Made by a program: the position numbers and the translations under genes. Source: Caballeronia turbans (GTDB taxonomy: Bacteria > Pseudomonadota > Gammaproteobacteria > Burkholderiales > Burkholderiaceae). Taken from it: a stretch of DNA of 64,000 nucleotides. Of the stretch, positions 42,460 through 64,000 are shown in pieces (within the stretch, counting starts at the first letter, position 1; the number at the start of each line of letters is the position of its first letter). The notes under the pieces are model-generated. The model saw only the letters and a program-made list of their open reading frames with translations, had not been told where the DNA came from and did not search any database. Where the stretch lies: positions 1 through 64,000 of the forward strand of contig FCOD02000006.1 in assembly GCA_001544655.2 (NCBI GenBank), read 5' to 3'.

Positions 42460-43941
42460 ATGTACTTAGGCATCGACCTCGGCACCTCCGAAGTGAAAGT
42501 TCTGCTGCTCGCGAGCGACGGCAGCGTCATCGGCACGGCGGGCACGCCGTTTACCGTATCGCGTCCGAAGCCGCGCTGGTCGGAGCAGAATCCGCTCGAC
42601 TGGTGGGAAGGCACGCGCGCCGCGCTCTTCAAGCTGCGCGACAAATTCCCGGATGAATTCGCGCAGGTGCGCGGCATCGGCCTCTCGGGTCAGATGCACG
42701 GTGCGGTGCTGCTCGATTCATACGACAACGTGCTGCGCCCCGCCATCCTGTGGAACGACATGCGCAGCGACAAGGAGTGCGCCGAACTCTACGAGCGCGC
42801 GCCGAACCTGCACGAAATCGCCGGCAATCTGGCGATGCCCGGCTTCACTGCGCCGAAGCTCCTCTGGGTCGCGCACAACGAACCCGAAATCTTCAAGCAG
42901 ACCGCGTGCGTGCTCTTGCCGAAGGATTATCTGCGCATGCATCTGACGGGCACGAAGGTCTCCGATCCATCGGATGCCGCGGGCACGCTCTGGCTCGATG
43001 TCGCACGGCGCGACTGGTCCGACGAGTTGCTCGCGGCATGCAGCATGTCGCGCCAGCAGATGCCGTCGCTTGCCGAGGGCAGCGAGCCGTCAGGGATGTT
43101 GCGGCGTGAGCTCGCGCGCGAATTCGGGCTGGGCGACCACGTGGTCGTCGCGGCGGGCGGCGGCGACAATGCCGCGAGCGCGGTAGGCATCGGCGCGACC
43201 GATCCGGGCGATGGCTTTCTCTCGCTCGGCACATCGGGCGTGCTGTGCGTGATCGGCGATCGCTTCCGGCCGAATCCGGCGTCGGCGGTGCATGCGTTCT
43301 GCCACGCGATTCCGGATCGCTGGCATCAGATGAGCGTGGTGTTGTCGGCGGCGAGCTGTTTGCGCTGGGTGTGCAAACTGACATCGACGGACGAGCCGAC
43401 CTTGCTCGCGGAAATCGAAGCCTTGCCCGCCGACGTGTTGCCTTCCGCGCCGTTGTTCCTGCCGTATCTGAGCGGCGAGCGCACGCCGCACAACGATCCG
43501 TACGCGCAGGGTGTGTTTTTCGGCATGACGCACGCGACCGATCGCGCGCTGCTCGGTTACTCGGTGCTCGAAGGCGTGACGCTCTCGCTGACCGACGGTC
43601 TCGACGCGCTGGAATCCGCGGGCACGCAGGCGCGCGCGTTGTCGATGTTAGGCGGCGGTGCGCGCAGCGCGTACTGGGCGCAGATGTTCGCCGATGCCTT
43701 CGATACCCCGACGCGCACGCACGGCGGCGGCGAGACCGGCGCGGCGCTGGGCGCGGCACGGCTTGGCTGGCTTGCGGCGGGCGGCGACCCGGCGACGGTG
43801 CTCGCCAAGCCCGAGATCAAGCAGGAATTTACGCCGGACGCGGGGCGGCATGAGATGCTTCGGCAGCGTCTGAAGGGGTTTCGGGAGTTGTATCAGCATG
43901 TGAGACCGTTGTTTGATCCGGCGCGGCCGAGGTTGGCTTGA
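42460..43941 (+). CDS. xylB: Xylulokinase
   Basis: Phosphorylates D-xylulose to xylulose 5-phosphate for the pentose phosphate pathway. The 493-residue FGGY kinase begins YLGIDLGTSEVKVLLL, carries the XylB hallmark GIGLSGQMHGAVLLD (about residues 72-86), the catalytic-Asp region AGGGDNAASAVG (about 232) and LSLGTSGVLCV, and ends with the second phosphate motif MLGGGARSAYWAQM. It lies downstream of dalD and upstream of the SorC-type regulator on the same strand. A large inverted-repeat element starts 68 bases after its stop. Confidence 0.93.
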   Translation: MYLGIDLGTSEVKVLLLASDGSVIGTAGTPFTVSRPKPRWSEQNPLDWWEGTRAALFKLRDKFPDEFAQVRGIGLSGQMHGAVLLDSYDNVLRPAILWNDMRSDKECAELYERAPNLHEIAGNLAMPGFTAPKLLWVAHNEPEIFKQTACVLLPKDYLRMHLTGTKVSDPSDAAGTLWLDVARRDWSDELLAACSMSRQQMPSLAEGSEPSGMLRRELAREFGLGDHVVVAAGGGDNAASAVGIGATDPGDGFLSLGTSGVLCVIGDRFRPNPASAVHAFCHAIPDRWHQMSVVLSAASCLRWVCKLTSTDEPTLLAEIEALPADVLPSAPLFLPYLSGERTPHNDPYAQGVFFGMTHATDRALLGYSVLEGVTLSLTDGLDALESAGTQARALSMLGGGARSAYWAQMFADAFDTPTRTHGGGETGAALGAARLGWLAAGGDPATVLAKPEIKQEFTPDAGRHEMLRQRLKGFRELYQHVRPLFDPARPRLA

Positions 43942-44009
43942 TTTTGTGGTGCTCGTGGGCTTCTATGGAATTTGTTGTCGTGGTCGTTGTTGGCGCTTTT
44001 TTTTTCGGC

Positions 44010-44634
44010 GGATCCCGTTTTCTTTTTGGTTTATTAGCGTTGCCCCTATGCGGGGCAGCAGTCACTTTCTTTGCTGCTGCAAAGAAAGTAACCAAAGAAA
44101 GCAGCTCGAGACGCCCGCGGTCACACGCAGTTTGGCCACGCTTGCCAGGTGATCGTGGGCTGCCTAAGTGTCGCCCTCAAAGGTTAAACCGGGCTTGGAT
44201 CGCGCACGGTCCGCCACCTCGCGTCGCATGGCGGAGCGGTTCAGCACCAAACGGCTCCAGCCCGCTTCGCGGCCGACCGGTCAATCGGGTCTGCCCGAAC
44301 TTTCTTTACTAACGCCTCCATCTCACTGCAAGTGCAGACCGATGTTGTCCCTTGCAAACCCAGCGGCAGCGCGTAGCGCTGTGCCGGCGCTATTTGGTGC
44401 TGAACCAGCGTCTTTTGAGTACTAGCTTGTCAGACCGTGCGCGATCCAAGCCCGGTCGGGCCTGTGAGGGCGACACTTAGGCAGCCCACGATCACCTGGC
44501 AAGCATGGCCAAACTGCGTGTGACCGCGGGCGTGTGGAGCTGCTTTCTTTGGTTACTTTCTTTGCAGCAGCAAAGAAAGTGACTGCCGCCCCGCATAGGG
44601 GCAGCGCTAATAAACCAACACGAATACGGGATCC
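44010..44634. repeat. Large inverted-repeat element, copy A
   Basis: A 625-base element with tips GGATCCCGT and ACGGGATCC. Its arms (44010-44210 and 44434-44634, 201 bases each) are almost perfect reverse complements. Each arm contains the hairpins GCCCCTATGCGGGGC and ACTTTCTTTGC/GCAAAGAAAGT. The 223-base core contains most of an 85-codon frame (44168-44425, plus) that recurs in copy B with a few substitutions, but no protein family is recognised and it looks incidental. No transposase is encoded, so it resembles a miniature non-autonomous element. It fills the gap between xylB and the regulator gene. Confidence 0.85.
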
Positions 44635-44702
44635 GGCAACACCCCAAAAAAACCCCAAAAACACCCCTAAAAAAAGCAACAAAGCAAAAAACGAAACCAC
44701 CA

Positions 44703-45650
44703 GTGCCCAAGTCCACTGAAAAACTCGACCTCGCGACGCGCGCAGCGTGGCTCTATTACGTCGCCGGCAACACCCAGAACGAGATCGCCGAAAAGCTCCA
44801 GATCTCGCGACCGGTGGCGCAGCGACTCGTCGCCTTCGCCGTCGAAAAGAACCTGATCCGCGTGCGCGTCGATCATCGCATCGCCGATTGCCTGTCGCTC
44901 GCGAAGGCGCTCAGCGACCGCTACGGTCTCGCGATGTGCGAAGTCGTGCCCATCGACGGCGACGCGCCCGAGCAAGTCGACCGCAAGCTCGCCGTCGCGG
45001 GCGCGCAGGTGATGGAGCGCTATCTGCTCGAAGAGAAACCGCTCGTCGTGTCGATCGGCAGCGGGCGCACGCTGAAGGCCTGCGTCGCTCAGATCGGGCA
45101 GATCGACCGGCCGCAGCATCGCTTCGTTTCGATGGTCGGCGCAATAGCACAGGACGGTTCATCGAATCGTTATGACGTCGCGCAGCAGCTATCGGAGAAG
45201 ACCGGCGGCAAGCACTTCATGTTGCCCGCGCCGCTCATGGCCGACAGCGAAGCCGAGCGCGCGCAGTGGGTGAGTCACCGGCTGTATCGCATCGTCAGCG
45301 AACTCGCGAAGCAGGCGGACGTGGCGTTCGTCGGCATCGGCAACGTGGGCGTGAATTGTCCGCTGCACCAGGACGGTTTCATCACGCGCGCGGAAGTCGA
45401 CGAGATGATGTCGGCGGGCGCCGTGGCCGAATGGCTCGGCCTGCCGATCGATGCAAACGGCAAGCGCGTGACCTCGAAAACCGGGGCGCGCGTGACGAGC
45501 CTCAAGCTCGATGCACCGCCCAAACGCCCGACGATCGGTTTCGCGGGCGGCGAGCGCAAGCGCGAGGCGCTCATCGCCGCGTTGAAAGGGAAATGGCTGT
45601 CGGGGCTTGTCACGGACGAGTTGTGCGCGAAAGCCGCGCTCGACGCGTGA
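44703..45650 (+). CDS. SorC-family sugar-binding transcriptional regulator
   Basis: A 315-residue regulator of the SorC/DeoR-like group. The N-terminal helix-turn-helix is NTQNEIAEKLQISRPVAQRLV (about residues 23-43, shown only as a landmark), and the large C-terminal sugar-binding domain includes VVSIGSGRTLKACV (about 114-127) and VGIGNVGVNCPLHQDGF, related to glucosamine-6-phosphate isomerase folds. It lies in the polyol locus, so it probably senses a phosphorylated sugar or polyol and binds the shared palindrome found upstream of dalD and of the sorbitol operon; this link is inference. Its start lies 68 bases after the inverted-repeat element. Confidence 0.9.
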   Translation: MPKSTEKLDLATRAAWLYYVAGNTQNEIAEKLQISRPVAQRLVAFAVEKNLIRVRVDHRIADCLSLAKALSDRYGLAMCEVVPIDGDAPEQVDRKLAVAGAQVMERYLLEEKPLVVSIGSGRTLKACVAQIGQIDRPQHRFVSMVGAIAQDGSSNRYDVAQQLSEKTGGKHFMLPAPLMADSEAERAQWVSHRLYRIVSELAKQADVAFVGIGNVGVNCPLHQDGFITRAEVDEMMSAGAVAEWLGLPIDANGKRVTSKTGARVTSLKLDAPPKRPTIGFAGGERKREALIAALKGKWLSGLVTDELCAKAALDA

Positions 45651-45653
45651 GCG

Positions 45654-46517
45654 TCAGAAGTCGATTTCCGCTTCCACGTCCTGCCCGACTTCCAGCGCGA
45701 CGCCCTCGCCTTCCAGGATGATCGCGTTCTTGCCGAAGGTGAGCGCGCCGTCGAACTGATCGCTGCCGCGATACGCGCTCATCGTGTCGAGCGGCTCGTG
45801 CGGCCACGATGGATCGTGCGCGCCCGTGCCCTGATCGATCGATGGAATCGGACAGCGCGTGCAGAGCTTCACGAGCCGTAGCCGCACAGCGCGTCCCGGC
45901 ACGCGAACGTGCATGTCGCCGATGAAATCCTCTTCGTACGCATCGAGCCCGCCGATCACGAGATTCGGGCGGAAGCGATTCGCCGCGATGCCCGGCGCGC
46001 CCTTGATGGACAGGCGTGCGTTGAGATCGTCGAGCGATGCCTGGCCGACGACGAGCAGCGGAAACTGATCCGCGAAGCGCGTGTGCGTGCTGTGCGGCGC
46101 GGTCCATTCGTCGCTGACGTCGCGACGCGAGGACGGCGCGAAACGCACGAGACGCGCGGACGTGTCCATGAATTCGCTGAACCATCGCGCAGCGTCCTCG
46201 CCGGTGTCGAGCGCATCGACGGTATCGCGCCAGACGGTCGCGCGTATCGCCCGCGCATCGGTGAGCGCTTCGGCGCAGAGCGGCGTGCGAAGCGTCGGCA
46301 TGCCGGGCGCGTCGATGACGAGATCGTCGCCATCGAATGCGGTCCTGATCAGCGCCATGCGCGGATGTGTGCGTTGCGTGAACATCGCGCCCGCCGGATC
46401 GGTCACCATCCAGTGACGGTCGTATTCGAGACCCGTGTCGAGGAGCGTCGCGCGGGGCAGCGAAATGCCGGCGCAGGACTTGACGGGATAGACGAAGAGT
46501 TCGTTCAGGACGGGCAT
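45654..46517 (-). CDS. MOSC-domain protein, YcbX type
   Basis: A 287-residue protein with an N-terminal MOSC beta-barrel domain (MPVLNELFVYPVKSCAGISL, with the PVKS motif) and a C-terminal MOSC domain (about residues 130-280) holding NRFRPNLVIGG and KLCTRCPIPSIDQGTG, whose Cys can bind the molybdenum cofactor. YcbX in E. coli reduces N-hydroxylated bases with the help of a flavodoxin-type partner; the ferredoxin domain of YcbX itself is absent here. It is convergent with the SorC gene, with only three bases between the stops. The start is placed at the PVLNELFVYP segment typical of the family. Confidence 0.88.
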   Translation of the reverse strand: MPVLNELFVYPVKSCAGISLPRATLLDTGLEYDRHWMVTDPAGAMFTQRTHPRMALIRTAFDGDDLVIDAPGMPTLRTPLCAEALTDARAIRATVWRDTVDALDTGEDAARWFSEFMDTSARLVRFAPSSRRDVSDEWTAPHSTHTRFADQFPLLVVGQASLDDLNARLSIKGAPGIAANRFRPNLVIGGLDAYEEDFIGDMHVRVPGRAVRLRLVKLCTRCPIPSIDQGTGAHDPSWPHEPLDTMSAYRGSDQFDGALTFGKNAIILEGEGVALEVGQDVEAEIDF

Positions 46518-61135: not shown

Positions 61136-61468
61136 GGGATGTCGAGTCCGAAAAGACGTCAGGGAAAACGCGTAAAACGCGGGTAAACCCCACGATTACG
61201 CGATGAACACGAAAAACGGACTATACGCGCGGCGTGATGAACATCATAACGAGCAGTCGAGGAAAGCGACCTTTCGTCACGCGACGGATTTCCTGCGATG
61301 TGCGCCAAAGCCCCTGTGACAAGGGCTTGCGCCTCTTCGCGCCACCGGTGGCGCGCGAAACCCATATCGACGCGCGAACGCGATGTATAGCGCCGGGCGG
61401 TCTTGTTCATGCGTTGCGATGCACTTAACTTGGAGGCCATTCAAATGAAGGCGATATAGGAGAGAGAC
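61136..61468. other. Divergent intergenic region
   Basis: A 333-base gap between divergent xylulokinase and permease genes. It contains no coding signal. GGAGAGAG (61461-61468) ahead of the permease ATG is a good ribosome site; promoters could not be fixed. Confidence 0.45.
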
Positions 61469-62860
61469 ATGGCTTCAAGTTCGGTGAACCCGTCCGTGCA
61501 TCCGTGCGACGAACGGCTGCCCGCCGGTCAGCTTCTGACGCTCGGCATACAGCACGTTCTCGTGATGTACGCGGGCGCGGTCGCGGTGCCCCTGATTCTC
61601 GGCGCGGCGATGGGACTGCCGAAAGACCAGGTCGCGTTTCTCATCAGCGCGGATTTGTTCTCGTGCGGCGTCGCCACGCTGATTCAGACGCTCGGGCTGT
61701 GGATCTTCGGCATTCGCCTGCCCGTCATCATGGGCTGCACGTTCGCGGCCGTCGGCCCGATGGTCGCGATCGGCACCAATCCCTCGCTCGGCATTCTCGA
61801 CGTATTCGGCGCGACCATCGCGGCGGGCGTGATCGGCATATTCCTCGCGCCGATGATCGGCAAGCTGTTGCGGTTCTTCCCGCCGGTCGTGGTCGGCACC
61901 GTGATCGCGGTAATCGGTCTCTCGCTGATGGGCGTCGGCATCAACTGGGCGGCGGGCGGCGTCGGCAATCCCGAATACGGCAATCCGGTGTTTCTGCTGC
62001 TGTCGCTCGTCGTGCTTTCGCTGATCCTGCTCATCAACAAGTTCGCGCGCGGTTTCATCGCGAATATTTCGGTGCTGCTCGGGATCGTTGCGGGCTTCGT
62101 CATCGCCGCGATGCTCGGCCGCGTGAACATGGATGGCGTCGCGCACGCACCGTGGGTCGGCATCGTGCTGCCGTTCCACTTCGGCATGCCGCACTTCGAT
62201 GCGCTCTCGGTCGCGACGATGGTCATCGTCATGTTCGTCACGTTCATCGAATCGACGGGCATGTTCCTCGCGGTCGGCGATCTCGTCGAGCGTCCGGTCG
62301 ATCAGAAGGCGCTCGTGCGCGGCCTGCGTGTCGATGGGCTCGGCACGCTGATCGGCGGCATCTTCAATTCGTTTCCGCACACTTCGTTTTCGCAGAACGT
62401 CGGGCTGATCGGCGTGACGGGCGTGAAGAGCCGCTTCGTCTGCGCGACGGGCGGCGTGATTCTCGTCGTGCTCGGTCTGTTCCCGAAGATGGCGCAGGTG
62501 GTGGCGTCAGTGCCGCCGTTCGTGCTCGGCGGCGCGGGCATCGTCATGTTCGGCATGGTCGCGGCCAACGGCATCAAGACGCTCTCGCGCGTAGACTTCT
62601 CGAAGAACCAGCACAATCTGTTCATCGTCGCGGTGAGCGTCGGGATGGGCATGGTGCCGGTCGTCGCGCCGAAGTTCTTCACGCAACTGCCGCACGCGCT
62701 GGAGCCGATTCTCCACAGCGGCATCTTGCTGGCATCGGTGTCGGCGGTCGTGTTGAACATCGTGTTCAACGGCGTGCGCAAGGAACGCGATGCGCGGCGT
62801 GATGCGCGTGAAGCCGCGCATGAGTTCGAAGGCGCGGTGCATGCGGGGGATGCGCGTTGA
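61469..62860 (+). CDS. Nucleobase permease, NCS2 family (xanthine/uric acid type)
   Basis: Proton-coupled purine or pyrimidine uptake through the inner membrane. The 463-residue protein has the NCS2 fold with about 14 helices: LLTLGIQHVLVMYAGAVAVPLILG near residue 22, the substrate-site TFIESTGMFLAVGDL (about residues 255-269) and the signature SFSQNVGLIGVTG (about 306-318). QNVGLI-type motifs and the FIESTG helix favour xanthine/urate permeases over uracil permeases, but substrate is uncertain. The gene is monocistronic and ends at a strong terminator. Confidence 0.9.
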   Translation: MASSSVNPSVHPCDERLPAGQLLTLGIQHVLVMYAGAVAVPLILGAAMGLPKDQVAFLISADLFSCGVATLIQTLGLWIFGIRLPVIMGCTFAAVGPMVAIGTNPSLGILDVFGATIAAGVIGIFLAPMIGKLLRFFPPVVVGTVIAVIGLSLMGVGINWAAGGVGNPEYGNPVFLLLSLVVLSLILLINKFARGFIANISVLLGIVAGFVIAAMLGRVNMDGVAHAPWVGIVLPFHFGMPHFDALSVATMVIVMFVTFIESTGMFLAVGDLVERPVDQKALVRGLRVDGLGTLIGGIFNSFPHTSFSQNVGLIGVTGVKSRFVCATGGVILVVLGLFPKMAQVVASVPPFVLGGAGIVMFGMVAANGIKTLSRVDFSKNQHNLFIVAVSVGMGMVPVVAPKFFTQLPHALEPILHSGILLASVSAVVLNIVFNGVRKERDARRDAREAAHEFEGAVHAGDAR

Positions 62861-62904
62861 AGATGGCGTAACCCTGGAAGTGATTGCTGGATGTTTGCGT
62901 TGGG

Positions 62905-62935
62905 CGCCGCGGTGAGAGTCGCGGCGTTTTTTTTT
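62905..62935 (+). terminator. Rho-independent terminator of the nucleobase permease
   Basis: CGCCGCG pairs with CGCGGCG around an eight-base loop and is followed by nine T. It lies just before inverted-repeat copy B. Confidence 0.9.
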
Positions 62936-62951
62936 GTTTTTGTTGTTCGCC

Positions 62952-63563
62952 GGATCCCGTATTGGTGTTGGTTTATTAGCACTGCCCCTATGCGGGGCAG
63001 CAGTCACTTTCTTTGCTGCTGCAAAGAAAGTAACCAAAGAAAGCAGCTCCACACGCCCGCGGTCACACGCAGTTTGGCCATGCTTGCCAGCCCATCGTGG
63101 GCTGCCTAAGTGTCGCCCTCGTAGGTCCAACCGCGCTTGGATCGCGCACGGTCTGACAAGCTAGTTGTTCAAACGCGCTGGTTCAGCACGAAACAGCGCC
63201 GGCACAGCGCTACGCGCTGCCGCTGGGTTTGCAAAGGACAACATCGGTCTGCACTTGCAGTGAGATGGAGGCGTTAGTAAAGAAAGTTCGGGCAGACCCG
63301 ATTGACCGGTCGGCCGCGAAGCGGGCTGGAGCCGTTTGGTGCTGAACCGCTCCGCCATGCGACGCGAGGTGGCGGACCGTGCGCGATCCAAGCCCGGTTT
63401 AACCTTTGAGGGCGACACTTAGGCAGCCCACGATCACCTGGCAAGCGTGGCCAAACTGCGTGTGACCGCGGGCGTCTCGAGCTGCTTTCTTTGGTTACTT
63501 TCTTTGCAGCAGCAAAGAAAGTGACTGCCGCCCCGCACAGGGGCAGCGCTAATAAACCAACAC
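62952..63563. repeat. Large inverted-repeat element, copy B (inverse orientation)
   Basis: The reverse-complement counterpart of the element at 44010-44634. The left arm is 62952-63152, the core 63153-63375 and the right arm begins at 63376. Arm-specific differences prove the flip: the GAGACG and GGTTTAACC variants of copy A's left arm are found in the right arm here. The right tip has lost the GGATCC end and similarity fades at about 63563. The internal 85-codon frame is present on the minus strand (63161-63418). It lies between convergent permease and efflux genes. Confidence 0.85.
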
Positions 63564-63600
63564 GAACACAGGCCATTCATGAAAGCCCAAGGCGCAGCCT

Positions 63601-64000
63601 TCACCTTACGAGGCCCTGCCCCCCCGTCCGCTCGATCCACCCGCCTCCCAGCGCCTGATACAGCGCCACGAGATTCGCCAATCGCTGCGTTCTCGCCGCG
63701 ATCAACGTCTGCTGCGCCGCGTACAGGTCCTGCTGCGCGGTCAACACGCCGAGATAACTATCCACGCCCTGCCGGTACCGCAACGTCGACAGATCCAGCC
63801 GACGCTGCTGCGCGGCCGTATCGCGCTCGAGCGCCCCGATCTGCTGATCATAGGTGCCGCGCGCAGCGAGCCCATCCGCCACGTCGCGGAATGCCGACTG
63901 AATCGCCTTCTCGTATTGCGCGATCTCGATCTTCTTCCCGATGTTCGCGGCATCCAGATTCGCCAGATTCTGCCCGCCGTCGAAGATCGGCAACGTGATG
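63601..64000 (-). CDS. Outer-membrane efflux protein, TolC/NodT type (partial)
   Basis: C-terminal part of an outer-membrane channel of a tripartite efflux pump; the gene runs off the right edge and about 132 codons are seen. The segment has PIFDGGQNLANLDAANIG, long coiled helices (EKAIQSAFRDVADGLAARGTYDQ, described as about residues 32-54 of the visible part), and LSTLRYRQGVDSYLGVLTAQQDLYAAQQTLI, the repeat structure of the alpha-helical tunnel. It ends soon after YQALGGGW, the usual terminus of NodT-type lipoproteins. The pump partners lie outside the window. Confidence 0.9.
   Translation of the reverse strand, partial: ITLPIFDGGQNLANLDAANIGKKIEIAQYEKAIQSAFRDVADGLAARGTYDQQIGALERDTAAQQRRLDLSTLRYRQGVDSYLGVLTAQQDLYAAQQTLIAARTQRLANLVALYQALGGGWIERTGGQGLVR

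What the first reader, a model, noticed from the sequence alone, without database searches (positions are those of the whole stretch)
44010..44634. Dispersed 0.6-kb element with 201-base inverted arms and a hairpin-dense structure
Seen directly: two copies (44010-44634 and, inverted, 62952-63563) share arms, core and an 85-codon frame, and arm-specific variants show that copy B is the exact inverse of copy A. The arms are 201 bases and contain nested hairpins. No transposase is encoded. All copies lie just after a gene's 3' end. This looks like a non-autonomous mobile or structural repeat family that may act on transcript ends, and I do not recognise it as a named element.
Basis: partly seen in the sequence, partly recalled or inferred. 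Interest (0 to 1): 0.8.

Follow-up and report, generated by a model that had tools for sequence, protein, structure and literature searches.

The report
Fragile palindromes that skew neighbouring genes
A family of about 600-base DNA palindromes scattered through Caballeronia and Paraburkholderia genomes sits at the centre of a mirror-image mutation gradient in the genes on both sides, which suggests that the palindromes break again and again and mark their neighbours.

Summary
Copies A and B belong to a dispersed, non-coding, nested-palindrome ("foldback") family: about 20 long copies in this Caballeronia genome, and the same architecture with an unrelated core in Paraburkholderia caribensis. 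The 85-codon frame is intact in 2 of 17 copies. No transposase partner was found. B is a private insertion beside a terminator; site A is old and holds long, short or no palindrome in relatives. The outer arm matches Rfam Bp1_684.

The unexpected result is in the flanks. On both sides the strand reading towards the element is rich in G and T, with skew falling to zero by about 1.5-2 kb. It crosses genes of either orientation and shows at third codon positions. Both sides are positive for 65 of 73 elements, against 220 of 1278 random points and 47 of 217 element-free gene ends. Ten sites against a relative lacking long copies there give C>T 307, T>C 143 close to the element, about equal far away. 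It recurs in P. caribensis (29 of 29 sides counted).

Best explanation: hairpins recurrently break the DNA, both ends are resected, and exposed 3' strands mutate, mainly C to T. The footprint is shown; breakage is inferred and the nuclease is unknown.

The parts
44010..44634 (+). Copy A of the foldback element, in the intergenic region between the 493-aa frame 42460-43941 (+) and the 315-aa frame 44703-45650 (+)
   Evidence: relatives hold long, short or no palindrome at this site
44010..44217 (+). Left arm of copy A
   Evidence: I1: 44009-44216 with 44428-44635, 208 nt, 93% complementary
44427..44634 (-). Right arm of copy A, inverted
44042..44056 (.). Small GCCCC-n5-GGGGC hairpin in the left arm; short forms of the element in relatives have the two outer ends joined at this hairpin
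44065..44088 (.). 24-base CTTTCTTTGC..GCAAAGAAAG palindrome; in Caballeronia sp. NK8 IS481-family elements are inserted inside the corresponding palindrome
44556..44579 (.). The same palindrome in the right arm
44168..44425 (+). 85-codon frame of the core; not conserved (intact in 2 of 17 copies)
62952..63572 (-). Copy B, a private insertion, between the 463-aa permease-like frame 61469-62860 (+) and a TolC-like frame ending at 63601 (-): convergent neighbours
62904..62935 (+). GC-rich hairpin followed by a T run, the terminator-like end of the upstream gene, conserved in relatives; copy B begins just beyond it
   Evidence: sequence
42500..46200 (.). Flanks of copy A: keto skew of the inward strand left/right 0.27/0.27 at 50-200 b, 0.11/0.02 at 200-400, 0.04/0.00 at 400-600 (the right side is weak)
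61400..64000 (.). Flanks of copy B: 0.21/0.15 at 50-200 b, 0.05/0.01 at 200-400, 0.20/0.11 at 400-600; derived changes in this lineage near B 6 towards keto, 5 away, so no footprint can be claimed for B

Best explanation
The element is a non-coding foldback repeat: a nested, near-perfect palindrome of about 600 bases that occurs as long, shortened and absent alleles at the same intergenic sites and sometimes moves to new sites. As a single strand it forms one giant hairpin. The hairpin makes its locus fragile: the DNA is recurrently broken or opened at the palindrome, both ends are resected 5' to 3', and the 3'-ended strands (those reading towards the element on each side) stay single-stranded long enough to collect mutations, mainly C to T, before repair from the sister copy. 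Over time this leaves a mirror-image G/T skew that is strongest at the element and fades over 1-2 kb. Shown here: the family, the allelic forms, the mirror skew, its controls and the substitution bias at orthologous sites with and without the element. Inferred: breakage, resection and deamination, and that the element is the cause.
For: Skew against distance: GC skew of the inward strand .25.26.19.12.12.09.07.05.03.016.002 and TA skew .66 falling to .00 from 0-50 b to 2-3 kb, 95-193 sides per bin, left and right alike. Both sides positive in 65 of 73 elements at 100-600 b, against 220 of 1278 random points and 47 of 217 element-free gene 3' ends; 15 of 15 in the own genome and 50 of 58 in other species. 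The weaker side still averages .084, so it is not a one-sided replication effect. It is present in windows whose gene reads towards and in windows whose gene reads away from the element, and clear at third codon positions. Filled G000 against G048 at 10 sites (nine without any element, site A with a remnant), 50-600 b: C>T 307, T>C 143; amino>keto 672, reverse 403; at 1200-2400 b 840 and 792. Divergence there is 14.5% at 0-200 b, 12.4% at 200-400 b and 9.5-9.7% beyond 1.5 kb (sums). At the L008 site changes derived in the filled lineage are 21 towards keto, 3 away at 50-600 b, 29 and 31 far (Fisher p .001). In lineages without the element at four sites, near changes run the other way: 114 towards keto, 235 away; far 341 and 345. 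Replicate in P. caribensis, core unrelated: 29 of 29 sides positive, mean .226. In print: palindrome cleavage by SbcCD on the lagging strand gives a two-ended break with 3' overhangs in E. coli (PMC4125073, passages), and long inverted repeats raise mutation up to 8 kb away on both sides in yeast (PMC3681665, abstract).
Against: No break, resection or transcript was measured. Canonical SbcD scores over its cut-off in only 17 of 58 genus genomes and not in G000; the footprint is present without it and also with it (G041: 9 of 14 elements with both sides positive), so the usual palindrome nuclease is not needed. Flanks of short forms are as skewed as those of long forms (amino>keto 152, reverse 192 for long against short, 4 sites), which speaks against a simple dependence on palindrome length unless it is a relic. 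Sites without the element keep part of the skew (.097/.066 in G048; 5 of 9 other empty locus-genome pairs have both sides positive), which can mean past elements or pre-existing skew. Pooled filled lineages near four sites (61/34) do not differ significantly from far (101/86), p .13; sites L011 and L015 alone show no gain (6/6, 9/11), and unpolarised comparisons at L010 and L015 give ratios 1.00 and 1.13. Near sequence is keto-rich, so some excess of changes away from keto in empty lineages is expected from composition alone. Copy B shows no derived bias (6/5), and copy A is weak on its right side beyond 200 b.
Confidence: 0.55

Rival explanations
1. An ordinary MITE-like element, moved by an unidentified transposase, that prefers to insert into regions already G/T-skewed on both sides; the skew is a property of the target, not an effect.
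For: Copy B is a private insertion next to a terminator T run. Sites without the element keep some skew.
Against: Filled and empty orthologues differ in the expected direction near but not far from the site, and empty lineages lose keto bases. Gene ends in general are not skewed (47 of 217). No direct repeats at the ends: mean longest shared word 2.66 against 2.70 for shuffled partners, 102 elements. No transposase-bearing version found: the four longer copies examined in NK8 hold IS481-family insertions (transposase family scan run on L024's only).
Confidence: 0.2
2. A bidirectional transcription insulator or small-RNA source: selection keeps a strong hairpin and U/G-rich or A/C-rich (Rho-site-like) flanks at gene ends.
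For: Mostly tandem or convergent placement in Caballeronia (59 of 60 clear); overlap with Rfam sRNA Bp1_684, whose B. pseudomallei member was tested by RT-PCR (PMC3521395, passages); slight excess of G-U over A-C mismatches in the stem, 616 against 497 in 102 elements (cells not independent).
Against: The skew runs hundreds of bases into coding sequence on either strand and at third positions; it is present beside verified divergent genes, 7 of 8 sides; site occupancy varies among species.
Confidence: 0.12
3. Replication-fork stalling at the hairpin exposes the lagging-strand template, without a double-strand break.
For: The hairpin is expected on single-stranded template; leading strands are usually G/T-rich (established knowledge).
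Against: Forks reach most loci from one side only, whereas both sides are skewed in 65 of 73 elements and the weaker side averages .084. Replication direction was not mapped here.
Confidence: 0.13

Closest known systems
Rfam RF02421 Bp1_684 (candidate sRNA of Burkholderia pseudomallei)
   Same: Matches the outer end of the arm over the whole model; above threshold in L070 (46.9 bits) and L012 (44.5)
   Different: 113-position RNA model of one arm end; says nothing of the 600-base palindrome, its copy number or its flanks. In the passages read, the paper treats it as a possible trans-acting sRNA
Foldback transposons and MITEs (recalled)
   Same: Long inverted arms, non-coding centre, dispersed copies, a private insertion
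   Different: No direct repeats detected at the ends, no transposase-bearing relative found; arms and centre together form one nested hairpin
REP/BIME/REPIN elements with RAYT transposases (listings only: PMC3116915, PMC2817692)
   Same: Intergenic palindromes; an insertion sequence that uses the palindrome as target (compare PMC1525189, listing)
   Different: Far longer; the one Y1_Tnp match in the own genome is not flanked by the repeat
Engineered fragile palindromes: 246-bp palindrome cut by SbcCD in E. coli (PMC4125073, passages); inverted repeats in yeast (PMC3681665, abstract)
   Same: Long inverted repeat; two-sided effect on flanking DNA
   Different: Those are laboratory constructs; here a natural, multicopy family with an evolutionary footprint, mostly in genomes without a canonical SbcD hit

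Membership tests
MITE / foldback transposon | Terminal inverted repeats | tested here: met
   Arms 208 b, 93% complementary; mean arm identity .876 in 102 elements
MITE / foldback transposon | Target-site duplication | tested here: inconclusive
   No excess of shared words just outside the GGATCC ends, 102 elements; exact ends are uncertain and no clean duplication was seen at B
MITE / foldback transposon | Related autonomous element with a transposase | tested here: not met
   Four 1.9-kb versions in NK8 carry IS481-family elements inserted inside the palindrome, not an own transposase; other genomes were not searched for one
MITE / foldback transposon | Mobility: occupied against empty sites | tested here: met
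   Copy B absent from 29 of 29 relatives' loci fetched
REP / RAYT system | RAYT (Y1_Tnp) gene flanked by the repeat | tested here: not met
   One Y1_Tnp match in G000, no significant element match in its 3.3-kb locus
Rfam Bp1_684 | Covariance-model score above the gathering threshold | tested here: inconclusive
   Above in 2 of 14 loci, below in the window
DNA-break fragile site | Two-sided strand-specific mutation footprint | tested here: met
DNA-break fragile site | Physical double-strand breaks at the locus | not testable with these tools
   needs DNA-end or RecA mapping

The most novel reading that the evidence does not exclude
A natural, multicopy family of fragile palindromes acts as a set of local, directional mutators: each copy repeatedly breaks, and the repair imprints a C>T-led, mirror-image substitution gradient on the coding sequence of both neighbours, which lingers as a fossil after the palindrome is lost. 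Hence past positions could be read from composition alone, and the palindromes may spread or change length through the breaks they cause.
Probability: 0.4. Interest if true: 0.9.

Novelty: new variant of a known kind. Interest (0 to 1): 0.78.

Why it matters
Long palindromes are known to break chromosomes in engineered strains. If this reading is right, a group of soil and symbiotic bacteria carries dozens of them per genome, and their cost is written in the neighbouring genes. That would give a natural, genome-wide record of break-end processing, explain local composition anomalies that can mislead gene finding and phylogeny, and make palindrome-driven mutation testable in the wild. It also raises the question of which nuclease acts where canonical SbcD is missing.

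Tried and rejected
Rejected: a conserved 85-codon gene (2 of 17 intact; no Pfam match for the frame). A RAYT partner. A phage origin (no match in the phage collection). An own transposase in the 1.9-kb versions: they are IS481-family insertions. The idea that arms are homogenised within one copy: arm difference within a copy .089, between copies .070-.082. The statement, after my first pass, that the element is never between divergent genes: withdrawn. In that first pass five of 17 copies were aligned in the wrong orientation; one search repeats the frame and arm counts with orientation mended.

Literature: ten searches of an open-access library. None of the titles and abstract starts listed described this repeat family or a mirror skew around palindromes; five exact-sequence terms gave 0 papers. 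Subscription journals are mostly missing, so this is no proof of absence.

Led nowhere: annotated plasmid records were mostly without gene tables; three regions of NZ_AP024327.1 had them. Searches were made to check the report; they changed the frame count and gave exact control counts.

Full report
What is there. Copy A (44010-44634) and copy B (62952-63572, other strand, 96% identical) are two of 20 places in the own genome that cover at least 549 of the 625 query bases; many partial places exist as well, several at contig ends. Arms are 208 bases and 93% complementary, 211 apart. Inside are further palindromes, so that copy A folds into one hairpin, -488 and -502 kcal/mol for its two strands. 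Over 102 elements the two arms are on average 87.6% identical, range 71-98%. The 85-codon frame is intact in 2 of 17 copies, A and B themselves.

Where it occurs. 27 of 41 genomes in the first relatives' search match: the own genome, 24 same-genus relatives, and 2 of 16 from other families of the order, the latter weakly. A strict arm pattern is found in 33 of 58 genus genomes. In plasmid records 13 match, 8 Paraburkholderia and 5 Caballeronia; no phage record matches. The P. caribensis copy shares the outer palindromes and the size of about 594 bases, but the blastn matches cover only 24% of the query, in two end pieces. The arm end overlaps Rfam Bp1_684.

Alleles and mobility. At site A, 29 relatives were read: 12 long, 6 short, middle-sized or remnant palindromes, 10 without, 1 cut by a contig end (my count). 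Short forms have the two outer ends joined at the GCCCC-n5-GGGGC hairpin. At site B no element match is found in any of 29 relatives' loci, 21 of them with both neighbour genes found; the copy begins just beyond the T run of the upstream gene's terminator-like hairpin, and the far gene's end differs from the relatives'. Ten further own sites were compared with seven genomes through joined flanks (a capped list, read by eye; sequences of 40 stretches): the same sites are long in many species, short in G009 at 5 of the 7 sites where it lacks the long form, and G048 has no element at 9 of 9 sites where both flanks lie on one contig. No direct repeats mark the ends (102 elements).

Placement. Among 106 elements 48 lie in tandem, 11 in convergent and 1 in divergent gene pairs; 18 are unclear and 28 too near an end. 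In P. caribensis 3 of 4 clear cases of 15 are divergent. In the three annotated NK8 regions two are tandem and one convergent.

The mirror footprint. Taking on each side the strand that reads towards the element, G exceeds C and T exceeds A, most next to the element and falling smoothly to zero by about 1.5-2 kb, equally left and right. At 100-600 bases both sides are positive in 65 of 73 isolated elements (15 of 15 in the own genome, 50 of 58 in others); controls: 220 of 1278 random points, 47 of 217 gene 3' ends without an element nearby. Genes reading towards and away from the element both show it, most clearly at third codon positions, where GC skew goes from .26/.32 to -.04/.03. Verified divergent pairs show it on 7 of 8 sides; the eighth is the side of L312 that holds a Mutator-family transposase, which may be a late arrival. 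P. caribensis: 29 of 29 counted sides positive, mean .226 (the negative L312 side was not among them). SbcD-positive G041: 9 of 14 elements with both sides positive, mean .092.

Substitutions. Against G048 at ten sites, 50-600 bases: C>T 307, T>C 143, A>G 161, G>A 114, C>G 185, G>C 135; ratio towards keto 1.67, against 1.06 at 1200-2400 bases. Site L008 against four genomes without it: 467 towards keto and 123 away (ratio 3.80), far 1.08; the four comparisons share the own lineage and are not independent. Polarised with all outgroups it is 21 to 3 near and 29 to 31 far. Long against long is .84 and long against short .79, so neither shows a gain. Sites L010 and L015 show no unpolarised gain (1.00, 1.13); L011 1.29 near and 1.24 far. 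In lineages without the element near changes run 114 towards keto and 235 away, far 341 and 345, p 1.6e-7; part of this follows from the keto-rich composition. Sites now without an element keep a reduced skew. I read this as a footprint that is maintained while the palindrome is present and relaxes after its loss. Copy B, the newest, shows none (6 to 5).

Mechanism. The inward strand on both sides is the 3'-ended strand that 5' resection of a central two-ended break would leave single. Cytosine deamination there gives C>T on just this strand, the largest asymmetry seen. E. coli palindromes give such breaks through SbcCD (PMC4125073, passages) and inverted repeats raise mutation on both sides in yeast (PMC3681665, abstract). 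But canonical SbcD is over its cut-off in 17 of 58 genomes only: elements (strict pattern) are in 3 of these 17 and in 30 of the other 41 (Fisher p 1.4e-4, not corrected for kinship). The own genome has instead an Mre11-like phosphoesterase below the cut-off. Which enzyme acts is open. Transcription, one-sided replication and target preference each fail at least one test above, but target preference is not excluded.

Verdict. The element itself is a new variant of a known kind, a bacterial foldback repeat whose arm end is already in Rfam. The mirror footprint was not described in anything that my ten searches listed, and is the reason for the score.

Noticed in passing
L024, L025, L026, L027 (Caballeronia sp. 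NK8): IS481-family elements sit at the same point inside the CTTTCTTTGCAGC/AGCAAAGAAAG palindrome in 4 of 4 copies examined, with CAGCAG or CTGCTG on both sides; two of the transposases (L025 and L024) are about 77% identical at DNA level in opposite orientation. It looks like site-specific targeting of the repeat.
   Followed up: partly
L340 (G000 contig C23, 15508-15843): Mre11/SbcD-like phosphoesterase, 57 bits against a cut-off of 77.65, in genomes that lack a canonical SbcD hit.
   Followed up: partly
G007 C170:49922-50518: One element with two different arm subtypes (GTGACTGCC..GCATA and GTTACCCCC..GGGGA), which suggests exchange of arms between subfamilies.
   Followed up: no
L003-L018 left and right of the elements: The outermost flanks carry either a T-run with CGCC before GGATCCCG or a GGGCTTCTATGGAA(T)CC motif; the two types occur at either end and may be old ends or target preferences.
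   Followed up: no
G000 C86, C39, C36, C62, C30: Short forms lie within some 10-20 bases of long or other partial copies, as in clusters.
   Followed up: no
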